The notes beneath the pieces were generated by a model that did no database searches, was not told where the DNA came from, and saw nothing but the letters and a program-made list of their open reading frames with translations. From the NCBI GenBank assembly GCA_024697825.1, contig JAILEP010000142.1, positions 1-34,667 of the forward strand: a stretch of DNA of 34,667 nt. The letters run 5' to 3'. Positions 3,588 through 31,430 of the stretch are shown here, piece by piece (within the stretch, counting starts at the first letter, position 1; every line of letters begins with the position of its first letter). The position numbers and the translations under genes are program-made. The stretch is from Acholeplasmatales bacterium. Its GTDB lineage: Bacteria > Bacillota_I > Bacilli_A > Acholeplasmatales > Anaeroplasmataceae.

Positions 3588-6257
3588 TTATTCTTGAATA
3601 AATCTTTGCATTAAGTTATTGAAACTTGAATTAGATGCTACTTCATTATCTGGTATAAATAGATATTTAAAAGGCTTATGCCCATTTGCAATATTATATT
3701 CACTAGCTACTTTACAGTAAGCAATTGCACGTTCCTTTTTAGCAACGACATCTGGATCAGTTAGTTTTCTTCTATCCTTTACTTCTACCAAATAATACAT
3801 ATCAGATGTTTCAACCACAAAATCAGGTTCATATCTATGTCCACGATTGTAAGTAATATTAAATTGACGTGAACTAGGTCTAAGCCACTGAATAACTTCT
3901 GGAGAATTTTCGCAGGCTATTGCAAATAGTCTTTCTGGATTACTATCAAACTTATATGGTGTCGTTACAGATTTTCTTGCTCCATCATAAGTAATAGAAC
4001 GAATGTCACCTTCTGGCTCTTCATTAATGTTTTTGATATCTCCAGATACATCCACTAAGTAATTTGATATAACAGTTTCAATGCCAGATACAACTTCCAC
4101 AATACCATTATACTTTACAGCTAGATGCTGTAATAATTGATTTTTAAATTTATTTGTTATATCTCTTTTATACATTAAAATAATGTTTCTTACTTCTTCT
4201 TCATTGAATCTTTCTCTATAATACTTCAAAAATTGAATAACAACTTTTTGAATGATTTTAGGACATTTTTCATAGTCAATCTCGCTGATTTCTCTTATTC
4301 CATCAACTAGTACTTTTTCAGGTTTTATCGTGTTAAAATCAATGACGCTTCCCTTAATAATTTGAGTTTCTTCTCTTGAATCTAAAAGATTTTTAATTAA
4401 AATTTCATTCGCAATTGGTACATAATTCATTTGAGATAAATCTAAATCAAAATCTTGAATTATATATTCTTCATCACCAAACTCTTCAGTTCTTATCTTT
4501 GGAATAAACATTTGTCTTTCTTGAACATTATTTATAATATTTTCGCCAACACGTGTTACTCCAAACATAGCGTCAATTATTCTTTGAACATCAGTATTGT
4601 CTGTAAATCTTTCACCTAAATCTTTTTCTGTTTGCTCTATAACTTGTTGAGTACTTACTATTTGTCCAGGATTTTGTCTAACTTGGTTATTAGTTGCTTG
4701 AGTAACAGCAGATACAATTTCATTATAGATATCTCTATGCTCTTGATTATTGTGATCTAATCCAGCCTCTGATAATACTTCTTGTCTTTGCTCATTATCA
4801 TCGAATAATGTTTGGATTACTGGAACAACATGACGTTCTCTTTCTGTCTCGGCATAAATTACACCTTCAGCATTAAAAATAGAATCTCCTCTTTGAGCTT
4901 CAGCAATAATTTCATCAAACTTATCATGAGCAGTTATCGTAACTGAGTCAATCATTTTTTCTCCAGTACGTTTACCATATGGCAATCTTAGACCTCTACC
5001 TACAGTTTGCTCTCTAAGTGTTTTACTTGTCGCTGTTCTTAAAGGAACTATTGTATATAGATTATTAACATCCCATCCTTCTTTTAAAATATTGACATGA
5101 ATAACAATCTCGATTGGATTATCAACCTTTTCAACATCCAATAACAACTTGATATTTTCCTCTTTTTCTGCACCTTTTTGATTAGAGTGCACCATGATAA
5201 CCTTATTCTTATATAAACCATTTCTAAAGGCATCAGATTGAATATATTCTAATACCTGTTGTGCATGTGTTGTGTCTTTACAAACAATCAACATAAAAGG
5301 TTTTACCAATTTAACACCATTATTAACAGAGTACTTTTTTAATTCTAATTTCATATTTTCGTGATGCCTTATGCCATCATTAATCATAGTCTTATCAAGC
5401 TCTTCAGAAGTAAAATTATAACTATTTATATCTCTTCTAGTCAAAGCATAAGGAGTTCTCGTGTATCCATCTTTAATTGCTTTACTTAAAGGATATTCAT
5501 AAACAACATTTTTAAACAATATTGTCTTACTTCCATCTTGAACTTGAGGTGTAGCAGTCAATTCCAATCCTAAAACAGGATTTAAATCATTTATTGCCTT
5601 TGCACTTGACTTAGCTCTATAATGATGTGATTCATCCATTATCAAAACCAAATCATCTAAAGATTTCAAATAATCAAAGAAACTTTGACCCAAATACTCA
5701 TTTATACTTAACATATTTCTTTCATCAGAATTAAATTTAGAAATATTAAAAATAAAAATATTTATTGATTCAGAATCTCCAATTGCATGTGCAGGTCTAT
5801 TTCTATAGTCATCATCAGCCCATATATTAGGTGTCTGAGTAGTAAAACAACTTACTCCTCTGAACACATACTTTTCATTATCAGAAGCTGGATTACCTAA
5901 ATCATTTTTAAGTTTGTTATAAATTGTTAAATTAGGTGCTACCACAAAAAAGTTTCTTATTCCTTTATTTGTATATAGATATGTCATAAATGCACCCATT
6001 AATTTAGTTTTTCCTACACCTGTAGCAAGTGCAAATGTCATAGACATAAATGAATGCTCAAATTCTTTAAAAATTGGATAGACATCATGAATGGAATCAG
6101 CAGCATTTTGTAAATTAGTCTCTTTTCCCAATTGTATTTCATCTAAAATAGAATCTAATATTTTTACACTTTGTTTCTGCGGCTTTCTCAATGACATCAC
6201 ATTAGAAATAGTATCAATATTAAATTCTGGATATAAAGGATAATTAATATTATTCAT
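3588..6257 (-). CDS. res: Type III restriction enzyme, Res (helicase-nuclease) subunit
   Basis: 889 residues from ATG 6257, with GAGGAGG 9 nt upstream inside the end of mod. The Res subunit, in complex with Mod, uses ATP to communicate along DNA and cuts near unmethylated sites. Superfamily-2 motifs are visible: Walker A ATGVGKT (78-84), DESH (208-211), TATP (234-237) and QTVGRGLR (417-424). The C-terminal PD-(D/E)xK nuclease core is YEPDF (Asp812) followed by EVK (825-827). All catalytic residues are present, so the enzyme looks intact. The gene overlaps mod by 8 nt (ATGAATAA) and is followed by a strong terminator. It is AT-rich like the rest of the island, which fits horizontal transfer. 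Confidence 0.93.
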   Translation of the reverse strand: MNNINYPLYPEFNIDTISNVMSLRKPQKQSVKILDSILDEIQLGKETNLQNAADSIHDVYPIFKEFEHSFMSMTFALATGVGKTKLMGAFMTYLYTNKGIRNFFVVAPNLTIYNKLKNDLGNPASDNEKYVFRGVSCFTTQTPNIWADDDYRNRPAHAIGDSESINIFIFNISKFNSDERNMLSINEYLGQSFFDYLKSLDDLVLIMDESHHYRAKSSAKAINDLNPVLGLELTATPQVQDGSKTILFKNVVYEYPLSKAIKDGYTRTPYALTRRDINSYNFTSEELDKTMINDGIRHHENMKLELKKYSVNNGVKLVKPFMLIVCKDTTHAQQVLEYIQSDAFRNGLYKNKVIMVHSNQKGAEKEENIKLLLDVEKVDNPIEIVIHVNILKEGWDVNNLYTIVPLRTATSKTLREQTVGRGLRLPYGKRTGEKMIDSVTITAHDKFDEIIAEAQRGDSIFNAEGVIYAETERERHVVPVIQTLFDDNEQRQEVLSEAGLDHNNQEHRDIYNEIVSAVTQATNNQVRQNPGQIVSTQQVIEQTEKDLGERFTDNTDVQRIIDAMFGVTRVGENIINNVQERQMFIPKIRTEEFGDEEYIIQDFDLDLSQMNYVPIANEILIKNLLDSREETQIIKGSVIDFNTIKPEKVLVDGIREISEIDYEKCPKIIQKVVIQFLKYYRERFNEEEVRNIILMYKRDITNKFKNQLLQHLAVKYNGIVEVVSGIETVISNYLVDVSGDIKNINEEPEGDIRSITYDGARKSVTTPYKFDSNPERLFAIACENSPEVIQWLRPSSRQFNITYNRGHRYEPDFVVETSDMYYLVEVKDRRKLTDPDVVAKKERAIAYCKVASEYNIANGHKPFKYLFIPDNEVASNSSFNNLMQRFIQE

Positions 6258-7983
6258 CTTCTTCATCCTCCTCATAAACTGGTGGACAAATTATATTAAG
6301 ATTGTAATTATCTTTCCCGAATTCACAGTTTTTTAATAAAGACTGGGGTATCTTCTTAATAGATATATTTTTAATTCCAGCAATGACATTAGTATCATAA
6401 GACTTACAACTAATTAAAAGATGCTCATCTTCTTTTAAATCAACTAAAATAGAATCAATCATTTGTTTTGTAACATGGGTTGTTGTTACAAATAAATATG
6501 AATTGTTTTCGTTTAAAGATTGTTTCCAAAAACAATCTTTACTTGGTGAATAGTTGTATCCTTCATGTAAAGCAATAGCGGCTGCAAGCATTACTGGATT
6601 GTATTGTGGATTTATAATGGCTTGTCCAAATTCGTCCTCGTTTATCAAAGTTGGGGCCAATTCAAAAAACTTATATCCACCACCAGAAGTCCACCCACAC
6701 GACTTTGTAACGCCAATCGGGTCTTGTCCGTCAATTATCCTATCCAGTCTATACTTAGCATGTGAATATGCATGTTCACCCATTTCTATACCAATCCATT
6801 TTCTTTTCATTTTGTGAGCAACTGCGGCTGTTGTTCCAGAACCTAAGAACGAATCCAAAACCCAATCACCAGGATTAGTAGCGATTTCCAAAATACGCTT
6901 TATTAATTGTTCTGGTTTTTTACTTCTTGGAAAATCAACTCCACCTTCATTAGCTAAATCGGCTTTAGGTATTTCTTCGTGTCTCCATACAGTAGTTAAT
7001 TTATTTGTTTTTACAATATTTCCATCTTCAATATATGCTGTATCCTTCAACCATGCAAACAATTCAGAATTGTAATAATAAAGAGTTGTTTTTTGATTTT
7101 TATATTTCCCTCTACTCGGAACATAATCAACTGTATATAAAGATGTTTTTTCCATTCTTGACATTAAATCATTTTGGAACTCATTTTCTTTTTGAACATT
7201 ATTCGTTCTAAATAAATGTTCAAAATTATCTAAAAATTCTTTTCTTATTTCTTTCTCGTTCTTCTCAAAATTTTTTAAAGAAATACTCTCGATTTGAAAA
7301 TTACTATGTTTATAGATTTTTACTATTGACCCATTGGATTTTGATTCAAACTCATCTATCAATTCTCTTTGTCCTTCTGATTTAAGTACCTTATTATATC
7401 TTTTCATAGTTTTCAATTCTAATAAGGAACTACCTAAAACTGGATTATATTGAAAAACACCTTTTGAATAGACTAAAATATGTTCGCTATTGTTTACAAA
7501 TAAACCCCCTTGCCCTAAACCAGCACTTCCTGAACGTTCATAAGTAATATCTGCAACGAAGCCAGTCACTCCAAAAATCTCATCCATAATTAATCTTAAC
7601 CTATGAGATTCAATATCATCAATACTTACCCAAATACTTCCTCCATCTTTCAATAGATTAAATAAAATTTTAAGTCTGGGATACATCAAATTAAGCCAAG
7701 TGCTATGCTCCCTATTATCATCGTAATACTCTAAAGCGTTACGTGTATTATATGGCGGATCAATATATATGCATTTAATTCTATTTGCAAATTTTTGTTC
7801 AATAGCTTTCAAAGCTAGTAAATTATCTCCATGAATTAATAAATTGTCATAAATTCCATTATCGAAAAGACCTTCCTCGTTTTTTTTATAACTTTTACTA
7901 ATATCTTCCATTAATATGCGTGGTTCAATCTTCTCTTCTTTATCTTTATCCAACCATTTTAATTCCAGTTTTGACAAACTCAT
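6250..7983 (-). CDS. mod: Type III DNA adenine N6-methyltransferase, Mod subunit
   Basis: 577 residues. Mod carries site recognition for the type III complex and transfers methyl from S-adenosylmethionine to adenine N6. The order is that of the beta class: the catalytic DPPY (75-78, DPPYNT) comes first and the cofactor motif FLGSGTT (379-385) later. The stretch between them (about 160-340), without these motifs, should be the target-recognition domain. GAGGG precedes ATG 7983. The C-terminus ends in an acidic run (EEDEEDE) whose codons also supply the ribosome binding site of res. I see no simple-sequence tract that would suggest phase variation. The target sequence cannot be read from the protein. 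Confidence 0.93.
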   Translation of the reverse strand: MSLSKLELKWLDKDKEEKIEPRILMEDISKSYKKNEEGLFDNGIYDNLLIHGDNLLALKAIEQKFANRIKCIYIDPPYNTRNALEYYDDNREHSTWLNLMYPRLKILFNLLKDGGSIWVSIDDIESHRLRLIMDEIFGVTGFVADITYERSGSAGLGQGGLFVNNSEHILVYSKGVFQYNPVLGSSLLELKTMKRYNKVLKSEGQRELIDEFESKSNGSIVKIYKHSNFQIESISLKNFEKNEKEIRKEFLDNFEHLFRTNNVQKENEFQNDLMSRMEKTSLYTVDYVPSRGKYKNQKTTLYYYNSELFAWLKDTAYIEDGNIVKTNKLTTVWRHEEIPKADLANEGGVDFPRSKKPEQLIKRILEIATNPGDWVLDSFLGSGTTAAVAHKMKRKWIGIEMGEHAYSHAKYRLDRIIDGQDPIGVTKSCGWTSGGGYKFFELAPTLINEDEFGQAIINPQYNPVMLAAAIALHEGYNYSPSKDCFWKQSLNENNSYLFVTTTHVTKQMIDSILVDLKEDEHLLISCKSYDTNVIAGIKNISIKKIPQSLLKNCEFGKDNYNLNIICPPVYEEDEEDE

Positions 7984-8810: not shown

Positions 8811-9209
8811 ATGGCAGAAAAGAAAATAGTTTATAGTGAACCGAAAGAATATTTTACACCTGAGCAACGTAGAGTATTTGAAGAGGCACCAAGAACTACC
8901 AAATTATTATCATGGTTCTTTAAAAACAAGAATTACTATATTCATGATACAGAAGTAGATTCATTACTAGAGTTTATTGATATTGTAGAACTTGATGAAT
9001 ATGTTCTTGATGGGCCAAGAAAGAAGACATATATCATTTATCTAACAAATGAACATAAGAGAGAATATGATGTTACAATCAGCAAAAAAGAATGCAATAA
9101 ACTTTTGAAATTAGATGAGGATGAATTGTTAAAGGCTGTTGCTGATATTATTAATGCGAAAGAGCCAGAGATAAATAAACCTATTATAAAGCTCATAAAG
9201 AAAGACTAA
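8811..9209 (+). CDS. Hypothetical protein (132 aa)
   Basis: 132 residues, soluble, acidic and Lys-rich, with no signal peptide. The middle (about residues 40-95) alternates predicted strands and charged turns, and the last 45 residues look helical. No family recognised. The start ATG 8811 has AAAGGG about 10 nt upstream. It is one of the few rightward genes of the island and stands alone between the CCUCC-loop RNA and a good terminator at 9296-9331. Base use is AT-rich like the rest of the island. An anti-restriction or defence role would be a guess from location only. Confidence 0.6.
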   Translation: MAEKKIVYSEPKEYFTPEQRRVFEEAPRTTKLLSWFFKNKNYYIHDTEVDSLLEFIDIVELDEYVLDGPRKKTYIIYLTNEHKREYDVTISKKECNKLLKLDEDELLKAVADIINAKEPEINKPIIKLIKKD

Positions 9210-11685: not shown

Positions 11686-11708
11686 AGAAAAACCAGCAAA
11701 TGCTGGTT
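11686..11708 (-). terminator. Terminator of the giant helicase gene
   Basis: A perfect 7-bp stem (AACCAGC/GCTGGTT, 4-nt loop; 11708-11691) overlaps the stop codon and is followed by TTTTTCTTT on the minus strand. Confidence 0.8.
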
Positions 11709-14700
11709 AATCAATCATTCTTTCCTTTAAGCCAAAGTGATATGCAAACTCAAGTCGTTCACGACATCTCTTATTCAATGTCTTAGACTCAAAATTAAAT
11801 GCCTCTAGTACAGCACGGAATAAATCTTCCTCATCTACCATACCACCCTGCATATTAATGATTTGCTTCATACATGCAATAAGCTCTTCCTTTGCGACAT
11901 CCTGGATATCTCTTCCACCGGCAACACGGAAATTAGACATATAGTTATCCTGATTATGCCAATAGAATTTATCGAACTGATCAATTGTATAGCTAAAGCT
12001 TGCCAATGTCATTTCAATTTCATTACTCATTCTAGGGCTTAGTGCCTTAATATGGCACATTTCTCTAATCTTAGCCTTAATACGGTTAAGAGAGATAGGA
12101 CCTTCCATATTAATAACAAGCTTCAAGCCTCCCTCTAAATTGATGAAGCCTGCCTCCTTGTCATATCTAACTCCAAGTAATGGAGCTTGAGTATATTCAT
12201 CTGGAGTAAGCTTAATTTCCTTCTTTTCCTTAACAAGGATTTCAGGCTTAAGCTCAATGCTCTTTTTAATATATGGATCATCAATCGCATCAACAATTCT
12301 TGCAAGAACTGCTTTCTTATTCTTAAAGTACTCAATTGAATATATATTAATAATCTTCCACTTTAAATTATTAAGCATATAATCATTAACATATAAACGG
12401 TCTCTTAATGATAATCCATCCATATTAGCTGAATTATCAACAATAATACCTAATTCATAATTCTCAGAATTTGGTCTCTTTATTGCAACATCAACTCTAA
12501 GTCTACCAGAACCTACACCAGTATTAACCTCATAGCCCATTTGCTTTAAATCATCAGCTAAAATCATTGCAAATTCATCATTGTAACCAATGTTTTGATT
12601 AGATACATAAGTGTTTCTTTCTGCATATGATAAGAAATACTTAAGCTTCTTAGCACCTAAGCTTGTTATTCTTTCATCATCCTCAAAATCACTAGATTTA
12701 ATTGTTGATATAACAATCATCTGTTCCTTAGATCTTGATACTGCAACATTTAATCTCTTTTCACCATTGATTCTTACTAAAGGTCCATTTACATAAGGAC
12801 GACCTAAAGAATTCTTTCTAAAGCCTACAGATAGGATAATAATATCTCTTTCATCACCCTGAACATTTTCTAAGGACTTAACAAATAAAGGCTCACCGCT
12901 TGCCTCTGCGGCATAGTTAATCTTATCTCTTAATTCCTTATTAGTACTCATAAGAGTCTGAAGCTTAGCCTCTAAAGCCTCCTCCTGCTTGATATTAAAT
13001 ACAATAATACCAAGTGATCTATCCTTATTATCAGGATTATCATAGATTTCCTTTATTGTATTAATAATCTCATCAGATTCCTCCTTAGAAAGGTTAGTAT
13101 TCTTCTTTTCCTCCTTAAGATATACATATTTAAATGCAACCTTAAAGCTATCTGAATCACTAGATGGGAATGTATATAATGAAGAATTATAATAATTTCT
13201 ATTAGAGAATTCAATTAAAGATTCATGATGACTTCTATAATGGAACTTTAGCTGATGTCTTGGCATATCAATAGATAAGCATTCATTTAATAATGAATCA
13301 GCATCCTCAAATTCAATATCATCCTCACTATAATTAATTCCAGCCTGGAAATATGAAGATGGTGGCATCTGCATAGGGTCTCCTGCAACAATTAAGCTCT
13401 TACCTCTTGCGATAGGACCAATAGCCTCGTGTGTTGGAATCTGTGATGCCTCATCAAAGATAACAATATCAAACTTAGAAACACCCTTACCATCACTATT
13501 ATCAACAGATAAATACTGAGCTGCAGATAAAGGTGACATTAAAAATACTGGGAAGTAGCTCTTCATAATTGAATCATAATTTAATAATGTTTCTCTTATT
13601 GTAGTACCACGTCCTGATGACTGAATTGCCTTCTTAAGTCTACCAATTGGAGATGATTCTAAATAATCAATACTGTTATGATTTAATCTAGCAGTAAGCT
13701 TAGCTGAAACCTCTTCTATAACAATATTATTATATTCATTAATTAATTCTCTATAACGCTTAATCTCATTTTCAAAATATGAAGGATTAAAATAATTAAT
13801 CTCTTCATCTAAGAAATATAATCTAATAATATTTTCCGCAATGCTCTTATCAAATACAGGACCTAAATCCTTAGCCTTAACACTACCAGATAAAATAGCC
13901 TCACTAACAACATTTAAGCCCATTGAATCAAGCTCTGCTAAAATATTATTGATTCTAGCCTGAGCAGTCAATTCATTAATATCTACCATAGACATATATT
14001 CATTAAATCTTCTAAATGAATGAATATCAAGAGACTTATATCTAACTGCATATTTTTCTGTAACAGCTGCCTCTGAATCCTTATAAGAAGCTAGCTCCTT
14101 ATTAACCTTAGCTAAGGAATTTCTTAAATTATCAGACTTAGCCTCATATATATCTGCGAATAAATATGATAAATCATCAAAGCCTAATAAATCCATATGC
14201 TTACATAATCTTACTAATTCCTTAGTATTTAAATAAGCATCCTTAACTCTATCAACCTCACCTAAATGATTTTTAATATCATCACCAATTAGATTGTTGA
14301 TATCCTTCTTATTTAAATCAATGTAGCTACTACATTCGTTATATTTACCAATAAATTCAAAATAGCCTACTAAATTCTTTTTAGGCTTAACATTAAGTAC
14401 AGGCTCAAGAACCTTCTTATATTTACCCTTAACCTTAAGCTTCTTAAAGAATCCAGTTGTATTATTAATTTCATCAATTGCGCTCTTATAATCAATATCC
14501 TTAATTAAATCAAGCTTATAATCACTACCTGCTTTAGTTAAGTCATTTAGCTTTTTAGCAGAAGCTAATACAGAATTAATTAATTCCTCATCATAATCCT
14601 CATAATAAGCAATTCTTTCCTTCATATATAGCTCTTTATTTAAAGCTAAATCTAAAAGTAATAATAGATCAGCTATTGCCGGCTGATTAAGCTCTGCCTC

Positions 14701-17601
14701 AAGGCCTGATGCCTTAACAAGCTTTTCGATATCATAATATAAATCATCAAATTCAGCTGCTAGCTTCTTAAAATCATTATGAATATTATCGGCATCATAG
14801 AATGATACCTTATCTAAGCCTACATATTTAGCTAAGGAATCATCATAATTACGGATTTCTCTAGTATGAGATAATAATTCTCTTATTAGATTTAAAGCCT
14901 TATAATTATCCTCTTCAGTATATTTAATTAATACACTATCTGGAATATTTAATGTTTCTTCAGTATTCTTATGATTTTCTAAATCAATAATTGCATCATA
15001 TAAAGATAAGAAATATCTCTTTTCATGCATCTTATTGATGATTCTAGATAATTCATCCTTTTTAACTAATAAATCCCTGCATTTTGCGTTAAATTCTGGG
15101 TCTTGGGCTGTTTCACCTATTTCCATAGAACTCTTTAATTTCGCAAAGAAATCAGCTTTATTTGCCTTGTTAGAATGTAGCTCAAGCGCAAATCTACCAA
15201 GCTTGATCTTTTCAAGTCTTTCCGCAACTACATCTAAGGCTGCCTTCTTTTCTGCAACGAATAAAACAGTCTTGCCATTATAGAAGGCATTAACAATCAT
15301 ATTAACGATAGTCTGAGACTTACCTGTACCTGGAGGACCATCAAGTATAAATGATTTGCCCTTAGCACAATCCTTAATTGCCTCAAGCTGAGTTGAATCA
15401 TATGGAAGTGGTGCTGCAAATGTAGAATAATCCTCAGGATCCATCTCTGTATCTAAATCAGGAACCTCATCTAGCATATTCTTATTTTCTAGAATACTTA
15501 GGACAACCTTATTCTTCTTTAATTCATCATGACGCTTCTTCATATCTAACCACATAATGTAGTGAGAGAATGTAAGATTTGCAATCATAAAGACATTTTC
15601 ATTTAAGGTAATATCACCATTATTTAGCATCTTAAAGGTATGACAAATATCTCTATATTTATCACTTGCATTAACACCATATAATGATGAATAATCGGCA
15701 TCGTCATGGAATAATGAATAATACTCAAAGAATGTCTGATTGATCATGACATCCTCATAATCATAAGCCATTGTATAGCCTGGCTTATTCTTATTCTTAG
15801 TAATCTTAACAGGAAGTACCATAAATGGTGCCATACCCTGCTGTCTATTCATTCTTTCATATTTAAGCATACCCATAATTAAATATAGAGTAGGCGCACC
15901 AGTTTCATCTGTTGCAGACTTAGATTTATTAATAATGCTCTTTAAAGTCTTATCAATACCAAATGTATAAACCTTAGAAGAATCATAATCTAATAATAAA
16001 TCCTTAGGCTTATAATCTCTTCTAATAACCTCATCTAAATCCTCAACCTTTTCAGCCTTAATAGGATCTAAAAGCTTAATCTTGTCTTCATTTAGCATTT
16101 CAGTAAAATCACCATCGTAGGCAATTCTTACCGAATTATTAGAATTAGGATTAAAATTAACTAAGACATTAGCCTCTGTTAAATCTAAAAGCTTCTTTTC
16201 CCAGAATGTAAATCTATCCTTATCCTCAGCCTTATTAACCTCAATATATTGGATATTTTCAACAGGTGAAATATCACCCTTAATTCTAGTTGCCTTAATC
16301 TCAGCCTCAATATTATCATCATCTGATTCTGGAATAGGTCTAAAGATTCCTCTATGAAGGAATTCTACATCATAGGCAAAGAATAAATCATCATAGCCAT
16401 TGATTAATTCAGTACCTGATTCAATGGCATCAGTAAATGATGCATTATTCAGTGATGTAACCATTACAGAATTAATAACTAATATTTCATCACTACCAGT
16501 TGTGTAATTATATAAATGAGTTGGATTAGTTAAAATACCATTATCAAAGATATCCTTAGCTAAATCCTCTCTATCCTTTGTATAAACACCAATAAAGGCA
16601 TGAGTTCTATTAACAATAAAAATAGGATTATAGCCAACACTTTCAAGTACTGCACAATAAAGCATGGCAATATCTAAGCATGTGCCTGAATGGCCCTTAA
16701 TAATTTCACTCGCTCTTCTTATTCTTTGGGAATATGGAGCGTCTGGCTCACCCTCATCATAATATAAGCCGCCTGCAGGTGGGTTTTGATATGCAATACC
16801 TGCATTATGAATAGCTAAATAAATAGCATTTAGCTCACGTCTTATATCATTCATATCAGCATTTTGATATGCGACAATTTCCTTATTATCATTATATTTA
16901 ATAGCCTCAAGTGCTAAAGCTCTAACATCCTTATTATTAGGAGTTATATATTTTAAATAATGTCTAAAATCATATCTAGCCTCAATAGATGGCACTGAAA
17001 GTGGTAATAAATAATAAATATGATGGAAGTCTGCAATGACATCCTCTCCACTTCTAAGTACGATATCTAATGACTGGGCTGTTATTTCATTAATAGCCTC
17101 TAAATTCTTAAGTGATACATAGATAAATGGCACATGAACAGTCTCTTTAGAAAAGGCAGTTAATGCAGGAAGATTAATTGTCTCTGCATTAAAGGCACCA
17201 TTTGAAAAATGGAATTCAAGGGTTAAATTGTCATATACCTTATTTCCTTCATTGACAAGCATTAAGCCCTTAATGAATGAAATACCTGTTGGATTACCAT
17301 CTCCTCCAACTCTTGATAATGTATCAACATGATAATCGGCATAAGAAAAAACATTGTCGATTTTAGCGTCAATTCTTACTCTTTCACCCTGAGGCTTATA
17401 TCCAACTATTTTCTTTAAATGTGTAACGTTATATGGCATATTATGATCATCATATTCCACTGTCTTCGCTACTGTTAATTCTCCTACTATTCCCTCAGCC
17501 TCAACAACATCACCTACATGTAGGATTTCATCACTTAAAAATGGAATCTCCTGAATGACATTGTCCTTGACTATATTTACGTATACTACGTAATATTTCA
17601 T
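11707..17601 (-). CDS. Giant transglutaminase-like / DUF4011 / SF1 helicase / nuclease protein
   Basis: 1,964 residues, by far the largest gene here. In order: an N-terminal beta-rich region; a transglutaminase-like core (about 290-400) with Cys308 in SGTCLDIAMLYC and His334 in RTHAFIGVY; a DUF4011-type segment (about 463-490, FTFWEKKLLDLTEANVLVNF); a superfamily-1 helicase of the Dna2/Upf1 (COG1112) type with Walker A GPPGTGKSQT (755-764), a helical insert of about 500 residues, DEAS (1383-1386), QGDERD (1581-1586) and NVAVSRS (1618-1624); and a PD-(D/E)xK nuclease-like domain (about 1675-1760, Asp1704, Glu1716) of the MTES_1575 type. The last 150 residues resemble the usual DUF3320-like end. 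It stands alone between rpsT and a regulator, with no partner gene. Relatives are seen among DNA-repair and phage-defence helicases; the role here is inferred. Confidence 0.85.
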   Translation of the reverse strand: MKYYVVYVNIVKDNVIQEIPFLSDEILHVGDVVEAEGIVGELTVAKTVEYDDHNMPYNVTHLKKIVGYKPQGERVRIDAKIDNVFSYADYHVDTLSRVGGDGNPTGISFIKGLMLVNEGNKVYDNLTLEFHFSNGAFNAETINLPALTAFSKETVHVPFIYVSLKNLEAINEITAQSLDIVLRSGEDVIADFHHIYYLLPLSVPSIEARYDFRHYLKYITPNNKDVRALALEAIKYNDNKEIVAYQNADMNDIRRELNAIYLAIHNAGIAYQNPPAGGLYYDEGEPDAPYSQRIRRASEIIKGHSGTCLDIAMLYCAVLESVGYNPIFIVNRTHAFIGVYTKDREDLAKDIFDNGILTNPTHLYNYTTGSDEILVINSVMVTSLNNASFTDAIESGTELINGYDDLFFAYDVEFLHRGIFRPIPESDDDNIEAEIKATRIKGDISPVENIQYIEVNKAEDKDRFTFWEKKLLDLTEANVLVNFNPNSNNSVRIAYDGDFTEMLNEDKIKLLDPIKAEKVEDLDEVIRRDYKPKDLLLDYDSSKVYTFGIDKTLKSIINKSKSATDETGAPTLYLIMGMLKYERMNRQQGMAPFMVLPVKITKNKNKPGYTMAYDYEDVMINQTFFEYYSLFHDDADYSSLYGVNASDKYRDICHTFKMLNNGDITLNENVFMIANLTFSHYIMWLDMKKRHDELKKNKVVLSILENKNMLDEVPDLDTEMDPEDYSTFAAPLPYDSTQLEAIKDCAKGKSFILDGPPGTGKSQTIVNMIVNAFYNGKTVLFVAEKKAALDVVAERLEKIKLGRFALELHSNKANKADFFAKLKSSMEIGETAQDPEFNAKCRDLLVKKDELSRIINKMHEKRYFLSLYDAIIDLENHKNTEETLNIPDSVLIKYTEEDNYKALNLIRELLSHTREIRNYDDSLAKYVGLDKVSFYDADNIHNDFKKLAAEFDDLYYDIEKLVKASGLEAELNQPAIADLLLLLDLALNKELYMKERIAYYEDYDEELINSVLASAKKLNDLTKAGSDYKLDLIKDIDYKSAIDEINNTTGFFKKLKVKGKYKKVLEPVLNVKPKKNLVGYFEFIGKYNECSSYIDLNKKDINNLIGDDIKNHLGEVDRVKDAYLNTKELVRLCKHMDLLGFDDLSYLFADIYEAKSDNLRNSLAKVNKELASYKDSEAAVTEKYAVRYKSLDIHSFRRFNEYMSMVDINELTAQARINNILAELDSMGLNVVSEAILSGSVKAKDLGPVFDKSIAENIIRLYFLDEEINYFNPSYFENEIKRYRELINEYNNIVIEEVSAKLTARLNHNSIDYLESSPIGRLKKAIQSSGRGTTIRETLLNYDSIMKSYFPVFLMSPLSAAQYLSVDNSDGKGVSKFDIVIFDEASQIPTHEAIGPIARGKSLIVAGDPMQMPPSSYFQAGINYSEDDIEFEDADSLLNECLSIDMPRHQLKFHYRSHHESLIEFSNRNYYNSSLYTFPSSDSDSFKVAFKYVYLKEEKKNTNLSKEESDEIINTIKEIYDNPDNKDRSLGIIVFNIKQEEALEAKLQTLMSTNKELRDKINYAAEASGEPLFVKSLENVQGDERDIIILSVGFRKNSLGRPYVNGPLVRINGEKRLNVAVSRSKEQMIVISTIKSSDFEDDERITSLGAKKLKYFLSYAERNTYVSNQNIGYNDEFAMILADDLKQMGYEVNTGVGSGRLRVDVAIKRPNSENYELGIIVDNSANMDGLSLRDRLYVNDYMLNNLKWKIINIYSIEYFKNKKAVLARIVDAIDDPYIKKSIELKPEILVKEKKEIKLTPDEYTQAPLLGVRYDKEAGFINLEGGLKLVINMEGPISLNRIKAKIREMCHIKALSPRMSNEIEMTLASFSYTIDQFDKFYWHNQDNYMSNFRVAGGRDIQDVAKEELIACMKQIINMQGGMVDEEDLFRAVLEAFNFESKTLNKRCRERLEFAYHFGLKERMID

Positions 17602-30275: not shown

Positions 30276-31430
30276 TTAAAATAAATTCTTAAAGGCATCC
30301 TCATCGATATGAGAACCAATTACAACAATCTTACCCATAGGGATAGCCTTATTATCAACAATTTCAACCTCTTCTGGAGTTAGGTTGAATGCATACCACT
30401 TTCCATCAGTACCACAAACGATACCCTTAGAACGTACAACCATACCATACTCACCAGCAGCAATCTTATCTAATGTAGCCTTAAGTGCAGTCATATCATA
30501 CTTCTTAGCTGTTTCAAAGCCAATTGAGTTAAATACCTCATCTGCATCATGGCCATGGTGATGGTGATGATGGTGGTGATGACATTCACAATTTGGATCA
30601 TCGCACTCTTCGCCTTCATGGTGATGGTGATGCTCATGCTCTTCATCTTCATCCTCATGATGGTGGTGATGATGGCACTCATGCTCCTCATCCTCGTCGT
30701 CATGGTGATGGTGGTGACATTCACACTCAGGATCGTCACATTCTTCTCCATCGTGGTGATGGTGATGATGACAGCTACAATTTGGATCATCACATTCCTC
30801 ATCCTCATGCATATCTAAATCCATGCCCTCAAGTAAATCAGTATTAAAGCCCTCATAAGCCTTAACTAATTCCTCATCAGATAATGTTGCGATTGGAGTT
30901 GTAACTAAAACTGCATCAGCATTATGCTTTCTTACAATTTCAATTGCCTGTGCAACAGTTTCATCCTTAGCTACATCAGTACGGCTTAGAATTACAGTAT
31001 GAGCAGACTTAATCTGGTCAACGAAGAATTCACCGAAATTCTTATCATACATCTTAGCTTTCTTAGCATCTACCATACAAACTAATGAATTAATTTCATC
31101 CTTAAAGCCTGCATCAGCAACTGCAGCGATAATATCAGTAAGCTTACCAACTCCTGATGGTTCAATAATAATTCTATCAGGATTGAACTTATCTACTACA
31201 TCCTTAAGTGACTTAGAAAAGTCACCTGCAAGGCTACAGCAGATACAACCCTGGCTTAATTCTCTAATCTTAATGTTTTCATCACTTAAAAAGTCGCTAT
31301 CAACTGAAATTTCACCATATTCATTTTCAATTAATACAACATTTTCATTCTTTAAATTTGTTTCTAATAATCTCTTAATAAACGTAGTTTTACCTGCGCC
31401 TAAGAAACCGGAAATAATGTCAATTCTCAT
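30276..31430 (-). CDS. CobW/ZNG1-type GTPase with a long His/Cys metal-binding linker
   Basis: 384 residues. Walker A GFLGAGKTT (8-16), the metal-site GCICC (61-65), EPSGVGK (90-96) and the G4-like SRTD (149-152) define a COG0523 metallochaperone GTPase, which loads zinc or another metal into client proteins using GTP. Residues about 208-294 are a low-complexity linker with 35 His and 10 Cys, built from repeats of ECDDPNCxCHHHHH and acidic DEDEEHE blocks. This is far longer than usual and probably a metal store or sensor. The remaining 90 residues form a short CobW C-terminal domain (MVVRSKGIVCGTDGKWYAFN). The promoter at 31457-31484 overlaps a TTGCAA pair. First gene of the operon. Confidence 0.93.
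   Translation of the reverse strand: MRIDIISGFLGAGKTTFIKRLLETNLKNENVVLIENEYGEISVDSDFLSDENIKIRELSQGCICCSLAGDFSKSLKDVVDKFNPDRIIIEPSGVGKLTDIIAAVADAGFKDEINSLVCMVDAKKAKMYDKNFGEFFVDQIKSAHTVILSRTDVAKDETVAQAIEIVRKHNADAVLVTTPIATLSDEELVKAYEGFNTDLLEGMDLDMHEDEECDDPNCSCHHHHHHDGEECDDPECECHHHHHDDEDEEHECHHHHHHEDEDEEHEHHHHHEGEECDDPNCECHHHHHHHHHGHDADEVFNSIGFETAKKYDMTALKATLDKIAAGEYGMVVRSKGIVCGTDGKWYAFNLTPEEVEIVDNKAIPMGKIVVIGSHIDEDAFKNLF
30555..30812 (-). repeat. Internal His/Cys/Asp/Glu-coding repeat tract
   Basis: Degenerate repeats encode the block ECDDPxCxCH(5-9), three clear copies plus variants, separated by acidic spacers. The DNA is a run of CAT/CAC codons, which makes the opposite strand look like Met-rich or His-rich frames. 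Confidence 0.8.

What the first reader, a model, noticed from the sequence alone, without database searches (positions are those of the whole stretch)
11707..17601. 1,964-residue transglutaminase-like/helicase/nuclease protein standing alone
One polypeptide joins a Cys308/His334 transglutaminase-like core, a DUF4011 segment, a complete superfamily-1 helicase with a 500-residue insert, and a PD-(D/E)xK-like nuclease. All key helicase motifs are intact. COG1112-type helicases with nucleases occur in several phage-defence systems, and a papain-like protease domain beside them could regulate activity. Here it lies in core surroundings with its own terminator and no partner, so it may be a single-gene defence or repair system.
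Basis: partly seen in the sequence, partly recalled or inferred. Interest (0 to 1): 0.6.

Follow-up and report, generated by a model that had tools for sequence, protein, structure and literature searches.

The report
Divergent ProA-type giant antiphage helicase
This rumen Acholeplasmatales genome encodes a giant single protein (transglutaminase-like fold, DNA/RNA helicase, nuclease fold and DNA-binding tail) of an already catalogued anti-phage family; the new detail is that the helicase is unvarying across relatives while the transglutaminase catalytic residues have been lost repeatedly, even in sister species, and the nuclease active site is incomplete in most members, this one included.

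Summary
The open reading frame is real: 1,964 aa on the minus strand, intact, with its own terminator. The architecture is not new. It was described in 2013 (PMC3710099), is catalogued as PADLOC PDC-S37 (E 6e-230), and matches NCBIfam 'anti-phage protein ProA' over its whole length (1,121 bits, below that model's cut-off of 1,500). The family is widespread across bacterial phyla and conjugative plasmids. In 83 full-length relatives every helicase key residue tested is essentially invariant. The TGc Cys/His pair is lost together in 17 of 80, in about eight separate lineages, including both sister species of this genome. Glu1716, the proposed nuclease residue, is not conserved, and the Glu and His of the full Vsr-type motif are missing here. 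The gene sits beside rpsT in 6 of 8 species of one clade but is absent from most of the genus. Best reading: a divergent solo ProA-like defence protein working through its helicase, with the TGc and Vsr folds mainly as sensing or binding parts. Defence is inferred from family annotation, not shown for this protein.

The parts
11707..17601 (-). 1,964-aa ProA-like / PDC-S37 protein, intact ORF (ATG start)
   Evidence: PADLOC PDC-S37 E 6.1e-230; NCBIfam NF058533 1,121 bits over profile 8-1902/1903
17386..17601 (-). N-terminal beta-rich module, residues 1-72, present only in the rpsT-linked relatives (G000, G008, G009, G013, G017, G023)
   Evidence: alignment A1, G013 start, G017 translation, predicted strands
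17002..17385 (-). immunoglobulin-like beta-sandwich, residues 73-200
   Evidence: predicted structure; matches to beta-sandwich domains including FXIIIa and HAP2, Z 9-10
16354..16989 (-). transglutaminase-like core, residues 205-416
   Evidence: DUF553 weak hit; Rad4/XPC TGD Z 9.8, BDI_1141 Z 9.4, PNGase Z 9.2
16678..16680 (-). Cys308 codon (TGc nucleophile position)
   Evidence: kept in 62/80 relatives
16600..16602 (-). His334 codon (TGc catalytic His position)
   Evidence: co-lost with Cys308 in 17/80
16471..16473 (-). Asn377 codon, third triad position (Glu in 55/62 relatives that keep the Cys)
15724..16194 (-). DUF4011 domain, residues 470-626
   Evidence: Pfam PF13195, 73.5 bits
12703..15402 (-). 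SF1 (UPF1/IGHMBP2-like) helicase, residues 734-1633, with all motifs
   Evidence: Pfam AAA_11/AAA_12; K761, D1383, E1384, Q1411, R1456, Q1581, G1582, R1616 invariant in 83/83
13492..15129 (-). large variable insert between helicase motifs I/Ia and II, about residues 825-1370
   Evidence: alignment A1, low conservation between columns 901 and 1400
12283..12567 (-). Vsr-like nuclease fold (REase_MTES_1575), residues 1679-1773; D1704 and D1722 kept, Glu replaced by I1720, His replaced by M1727
   Evidence: Pfam PF18741; structure; active-site counts
11710..12165 (-). C-terminal winged-helix-like region (DUF3320-like), residues about 1813-1964
   Evidence: weak DUF3320 hit; predicted helices at pLDDT 90+; wHTH overlapping DUF3320 described in the same architecture
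11691..11708 (-). terminator-like hairpin directly after the stop codon
17788..18048 (+). rpsT, divergent neighbour kept beside this gene in 5 other species of the clade

Best explanation
It is a divergent Bacilli-branch member of the ProA / PDC-S37 family of giant single-gene anti-phage (anti-mobile-element) proteins. Most likely the SF1 helicase engine engages foreign nucleic acid or abnormal replication or transcription intermediates, guided by the C-terminal winged-helix-like region and the Vsr-like fold, and processes or blocks it using ATP. The transglutaminase-like domain acts mainly as a sensing or docking part, as the catalytically dead one in the DNA-repair protein Rad4/XPC does; protein cleavage by it is optional rather than essential. 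Shown here: the ORF, the folds (by prediction), invariance of the helicase, repeated loss of the TGc pair, incomplete nuclease motif, solo gene, patchy distribution. Inferred: anti-phage function (from family annotation), the target, and the direction of the mechanism.
For: PDC-S37 E 6e-230; NCBIfam ProA over profile positions 8-1902 of 1,903, with the same architecture in P. fluorescens, R. albus, Apibacter and Eisenbergiella scoring 1,961-2,190 bits, over the cut-off, and one same-order genome just over it (1,505). Helicase residues K761, D1383, E1384, Q1411, R1456, Q1581, G1582 and R1616 invariant in 83 of 83. TGc Cys/His both lost in 17 of 80 in about 8 clades, including G008 (Q/Q) and G009 (Q/E), the closest relatives at 51-52% identity at the same rpsT site. 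Among the best TGc fold matches is Rad4/XPC. Patchy in the genus, on 331 plasmid records of which 203 are conjugative. No constant neighbour in 41 loci. The 2013 analysis proposes restriction-like defence without a modification partner.
Against: The window protein is below the ProA equivalog cut-off (1,121 against 1,500), so function may not carry over. Immediate neighbours of the family are not enriched for PADLOC hits over genes 5.5-10 kb away. The gene keeps one chromosomal place and core-like GC (0.319; malQ 0.324) in its clade. In the window protein the TGc Cys/His pair is intact, which suggests selection for catalysis in this species. The paper that defines ProA could not be read.
Confidence: 0.5

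Rival explanations
1. Abortive or direct defence in which the transglutaminase-like domain is the effector: the helicase senses phage nucleic acid and switches on a Cys protease or isopeptidase that cleaves or modifies proteins.
For: Cys308, His334 and Asn377 are intact here; 62 of 80 relatives keep the Cys; Cys and His are lost together and never His alone, as expected of a true catalytic pair; the TGc fold is supported; the 2013 authors suggest protein cleavage as a further line of defence.
Against: The pair is lost in about 8 lineages while the domain and the rest of the protein are kept, including both sister species at the same locus; at least one member with a lost pair passes the NCBIfam ProA cut-off (G026, T/K).
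Confidence: 0.2
2. A housekeeping or genome-maintenance helicase-nuclease (repair, R-loop or replication-transcription conflict) kept at a core locus, not a defence gene.
For: Divergent from rpsT in 6 of 8 species of one clade; core-like GC; large DUF4011 genes can be core: one flanks the P. aeruginosa defence hotspot cDHS1 in every isolate; no defence enrichment among neighbours.
Against: Missing from most of the genus including genomes 94-98% complete; found at other places in other species; plasmid-borne relatives in 331 records; within-genus copies at 41-43% identity are no closer than other-family copies at 45%.
Confidence: 0.22
3. A restriction-like nuclease: the Vsr-like domain cleaves invading DNA after the helicase translocates.
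For: Vsr-like fold; D1704 in 80/82 and D1722 in 76/82 relatives are conserved; family members in another branch have the full D...ExDG..YH motif.
Against: The window protein has Ile1720 and Met1727 where that motif has Glu and His; both are present in only 14 of 82 relatives.
Confidence: 0.08

Closest known systems
NCBIfam NF058533 'anti-phage protein ProA' (equivalog)
   Same: Full-length collinear match, same order of TGc, DUF4011, SF1 helicase, Vsr-like nuclease and C-terminal region
   Different: 1,121 bits against a cut-off of 1,500; extra N-terminal beta module of about 70 aa; TGc third residue Asn instead of Glu; Vsr motif degenerate
PADLOC PDC-S37 (candidate single-gene defence system)
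   Same: E 6.1e-230 over residues 462-1949
   Different: The PADLOC model (1,550 positions) was matched only from residue 462, so it gave no match to the TGc half; status is candidate
HEPN-transglutaminase-SF1 helicase-Vsr-wHTH giant proteins such as MTES_1575 (2013, PMC3710099)
   Same: TGc + SF1 helicase + Vsr-type REase + wHTH/DUF3320 in one polypeptide, no modification partner
   Different: No N-terminal HEPN domain: the N terminus here is predicted beta-rich
Hhe (DUF4011 anti-phage helicase; listed as Gao Hhe)
   Same: Shares the helicase and Vsr-like parts (501 bits)
   Different: Far below the cut-off of 2,000; best Hhe stretch starts inside the helicase region
Rad4/XPC transglutaminase-homology domain
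   Same: Top structural match of residues 205-416 (Z 9.8); shows that this fold can serve a nucleic-acid-binding machine without catalysis (known biology)
   Different: Eukaryotic repair factor, no helicase fusion; a fold resemblance only

Membership tests
NCBIfam NF058533 ProA (equivalog) | Score over the curated cut-off of 1,500 bits | tested here: not met
   1,121.3 bits; hence filed as ProA-like, not as ProA equivalog
NCBIfam NF058533 ProA (equivalog) | Collinear match over nearly the whole model | tested here: met
   profile 8-1902 of 1,903 in one stretch
NCBIfam NF058533 ProA (equivalog) | Anti-phage activity | not testable with these tools
   needs a phage challenge; the primary paper is not in the library
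PADLOC PDC-S37 | HMM match over most of the model | tested here: met
   764.7 bits, profile 8-1525 of 1,550
PADLOC PDC-S37 | Single-gene system without a constant partner | tested here: met
   no neighbour family shared by more than 3 of 41 loci
TGc-SF1-Vsr-wHTH giant proteins (2013) | Transglutaminase-like fold | tested here: met
TGc-SF1-Vsr-wHTH giant proteins (2013) | Complete SF1 helicase | tested here: met
TGc-SF1-Vsr-wHTH giant proteins (2013) | Vsr-type REase fold | tested here: met
   Pfam PF18741; Vsr Z 9.1, NGO0050 Z 10.6
TGc-SF1-Vsr-wHTH giant proteins (2013) | Complete Vsr-type active site (D...ExDG..YH), seen in one branch only | tested here: not met
   D1704 and D1722 kept, Ile1720 and Met1727 in place of Glu and His
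TGc-SF1-Vsr-wHTH giant proteins (2013) | C-terminal wHTH / DUF3320 | tested here: inconclusive
   DUF3320 only at E 0.12, helical C-terminus predicted with high confidence
HEPN fusion subgroup (MTES_1575) | N-terminal HEPN domain | tested here: not met
   N terminus is predicted beta-rich and no HEPN hit was found
Hhe (NF042953) | Score over the cut-off of 2,000 bits | tested here: not met
   501.2 bits
Transglutaminase-like catalytic domain | Cys-His-acidic/Asn triad | tested here: met
   C308, H334, N377; activity itself not testable here

The most novel reading that the evidence does not exclude
ProA-type proteins defend through a helicase motor plus non-catalytic recognition domains. The transglutaminase-like catalytic pair is an accessory activity that is repeatedly switched off in evolution (8 or so independent paired losses, two of them within one set of orthologues beside rpsT), possibly under pressure from phage inhibitors or because of self-toxicity. 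This would make the domain a bacterial counterpart of the dead transglutaminase domain of Rad4/XPC.
Probability: 0.25. Interest if true: 0.5.

Novelty: new member of a known kind. Interest (0 to 1): 0.3.

Why it matters
The gene itself is a further, divergent member of a family already listed as anti-phage. What adds value is the evolutionary pattern. It says which parts of ProA-like proteins must work (the helicase) and which need not (TGc catalysis; the full Vsr-type active site), so mutagenesis can be aimed correctly. Orthologues at one locus with and without the Cys/His pair (G000 and G017 against G008, G009, G013 and G023) are a natural experiment that makes the role of the protease-like domain directly testable.

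Tried and rejected
XRE regulator as partner: rejected, because XRE-rplM-rpsI forms its own unit in G003, G008, G013, G040 and G042, away from this gene. Adjacent type III R-M as functional partner: not supported, as it is not found beside this gene in relatives; the 3' side of rpsI is a recurrent integrase insertion site. Defence-island enrichment of the family: tested with 127 nearest against 127 distant neighbour genes; no clear excess. The output lists only the top 25 models and both sets lie within about 10 kb, so this is a weak null. Origin paper of 'ProA': ten literature searches did not find it. Sequence comparison with solved structures for the N- and C-terminal parts gave only weak hits. 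Phage-borne origin: only 1 of 50,697 phage records matched. Viral-contig hits may be prophage flanks and were not used as evidence for a function. dN/dS was not attempted because the relatives are too diverged.
Full report
What is there. Window 11707-17601, minus strand, is one intact ORF of 1,964 aa starting with ATG, with AGGGAG upstream of the start and a hairpin-plus-T terminator directly after the stop. Its GC (0.319) equals that of core neighbours such as malQ (0.324) and holA (0.312) and lies above that of the type III R-M genes (0.296-0.305). Divergently beside it is rpsT; downstream, after its terminator, come an XRE regulator, rplM and rpsI.

Domains. Pfam finds DUF4011 (470-626), two SF1 helicase halves (734-1633), REase_MTES_1575 (1679-1773) and a borderline TGc hit, DUF553. 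Because the TGc evidence by sequence is thin, residues 1-735 and 1640-1964 were folded with alignments of 49 and 41 sequences. The TGc region has pLDDT above 90 in most blocks and aligns with the Rad4/XPC transglutaminase-homology domain (Z 9.8, 163 residues, rmsd 3.4), BDI_1141 (Z 9.4) and PNGase (Z 9.2); Foldseek's top hits include transglutaminase 2. The nuclease region aligns with NGO0050 (Z 10.6), I-Bth0305I (Z 9.5) and Vsr (Z 9.1). Ahead of the TGc core lie a beta-sandwich (73-200) and a beta-rich module (1-72) that only the rpsT-linked relatives carry.

Known family. PADLOC-DB matches PDC-S37 at E 6e-230. NCBIfam matches 'anti-phage protein ProA' (NF058533) across 8-1902 of 1,903 positions at 1,121 bits, below its 1,500-bit cut-off. 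Proteins with the same architecture from P. fluorescens, Ruminococcus albus, Apibacter and Eisenbergiella score 1,961-2,190, a Bacilli relative scores 1,448, and one genome of the same order just passes (1,505). The window protein is thus a fast-evolving Bacilli branch (tree) of the ProA family. The combination of transglutaminase, SF1 helicase, Vsr-type REase and wHTH overlapping DUF3320 was described in 2013, with the proposals that such proteins act against invading DNA without a modification partner and that the transglutaminase may add protein cleavage (PMC3710099). The paper behind the name ProA could not be found in the library, so its experimental basis is taken from the NCBIfam name only.

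What is conserved. In 83 full-length relatives, K761, D1383, E1384, Q1411, R1456, Q1581, G1582 and R1616 are invariant. Cys308 is kept in 62 of 80; it is lost in 18, and in 17 of those His334 is lost too, while no relative loses His alone. Parsimony on the tree gives about 8 separate losses. The third triad position is Glu in 55 of 62 that keep the Cys, but Asp in 12 of 18 that lost it; the window has Asn377. Association counts ignore relatedness, so the number of lineages is the safer figure. The nearest relatives, G008 (an Acholeplasmatales MAG from goat reticulum, RGIG3211) and G009, at 51-52% identity, have Gln/Gln and Gln/Glu instead of Cys/His.

Nuclease. One branch of the family has a full motif, D...(G)ExDG..YH (for example L163). 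The window keeps D1704 and D1722 but has Ile1720 and Met1727 where that motif has Glu and His; both are present in only 14 of 82 relatives. DNA cleavage by this domain in this protein is therefore doubtful, though not excluded.

Locus history. In the genus (27 genomes, many of them incomplete) about 12 carry a TGc-bearing copy. Six have it beside rpsT: G000, G008, G009, G017, G023, and G013 with one gene between. They all fall in one clade of eight species with support 0.99, so the gene has probably been inherited at this place for a long time and lost in G010 and G012. In G002 and G041 a shorter DUF4011 helicase without the TGc part occupies the same side of rpsT; elsewhere gpr, mutY, pgsA-recA or others do. 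G003, G006, G015, G040 and G042 have it elsewhere. Copies from another family (G024, G028; 45%) are as close as other same-genus copies (41-43%) and sit next to a low-molecular-weight phosphatase and rplM-rpsI. On plasmids, 331 records match, 203 of them conjugative, chiefly Klebsiella. Together: a mobile family with clade-level fixation, neither a universal housekeeping gene nor a recent arrival. A precedent for a fixed DUF4011 gene is the core gene flanking the P. aeruginosa hotspot cDHS1 (PMC10250203); whether that gene is ProA was not tested.

Mechanism. The one part that selection never lets go is the helicase. The TGc domain is kept as a fold even where its catalytic pair is gone, and among its best structural matches is the dead domain of Rad4/XPC, which serves DNA damage recognition (known biology). 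The most economical reading is that nucleic-acid engagement and ATP-driven processing by the helicase is the core activity, that the C-terminal winged-helix-like region and Vsr-like fold help bind nucleic acid, and that the TGc domain senses or docks a trigger, with proteolysis optional. Shown: sequence, predicted folds, conservation pattern, distribution. Inferred: defence, target, order of events. Rivals are a TGc-protease effector, a housekeeping helicase, and a restriction nuclease, each with tests given.

Verdict. Observation largely right, with a wrong nuclease residue and an incomplete view of the surroundings. Interpretation partly supported, but of a known kind. Interest 0.3, mainly for the repeated paired loss of the transglutaminase catalytic residues within orthologues of one locus.

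Noticed in passing
window 3588-7983: Type III restriction-modification pair (Mod 6250-7983, Res 3588-6275, minus strand) on the 3' side of rpsI, with low GC (0.30).
   Followed up: partly
3' side of rpsI: L061:10496-11581, L065:6334-7413, L067:10800-11891, L066:5258-6343: In four other species of the genus a tyrosine integrase (Pfam Phage_integrase) lies within about 2.5 kb downstream of rpsI, so this looks like a recurrent insertion site for mobile elements.
   Followed up: partly
L025:1414-1896 and stand-alone ORFs of about 160-170 aa in other genus genomes (e.g. G003:C1:106673, G008:C56:51753): The C-terminal domain of the giant protein (residues about 1821-1953) has stand-alone homologues in many genomes of the genus; in this genome it lies beside a methyltransferase-like gene. 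No Pfam family matches it.
   Followed up: no
L122:2966-7414 (G002) and L120:5615-10078 (G041): A shorter DUF4011 helicase without the transglutaminase part occupies the same rpsT-adjacent slot in two species, followed by a two-component-system-like gene pair.
   Followed up: no
window 8811-9209 (+): 132-aa ORF without any Pfam or PADLOC match between rpsI and the type III R-M genes.
   Followed up: no
window 30276-31430 (-): CobW-like GTPase with very long His-rich tracts (HHHHHH repeats), probably metal binding.
   Followed up: no
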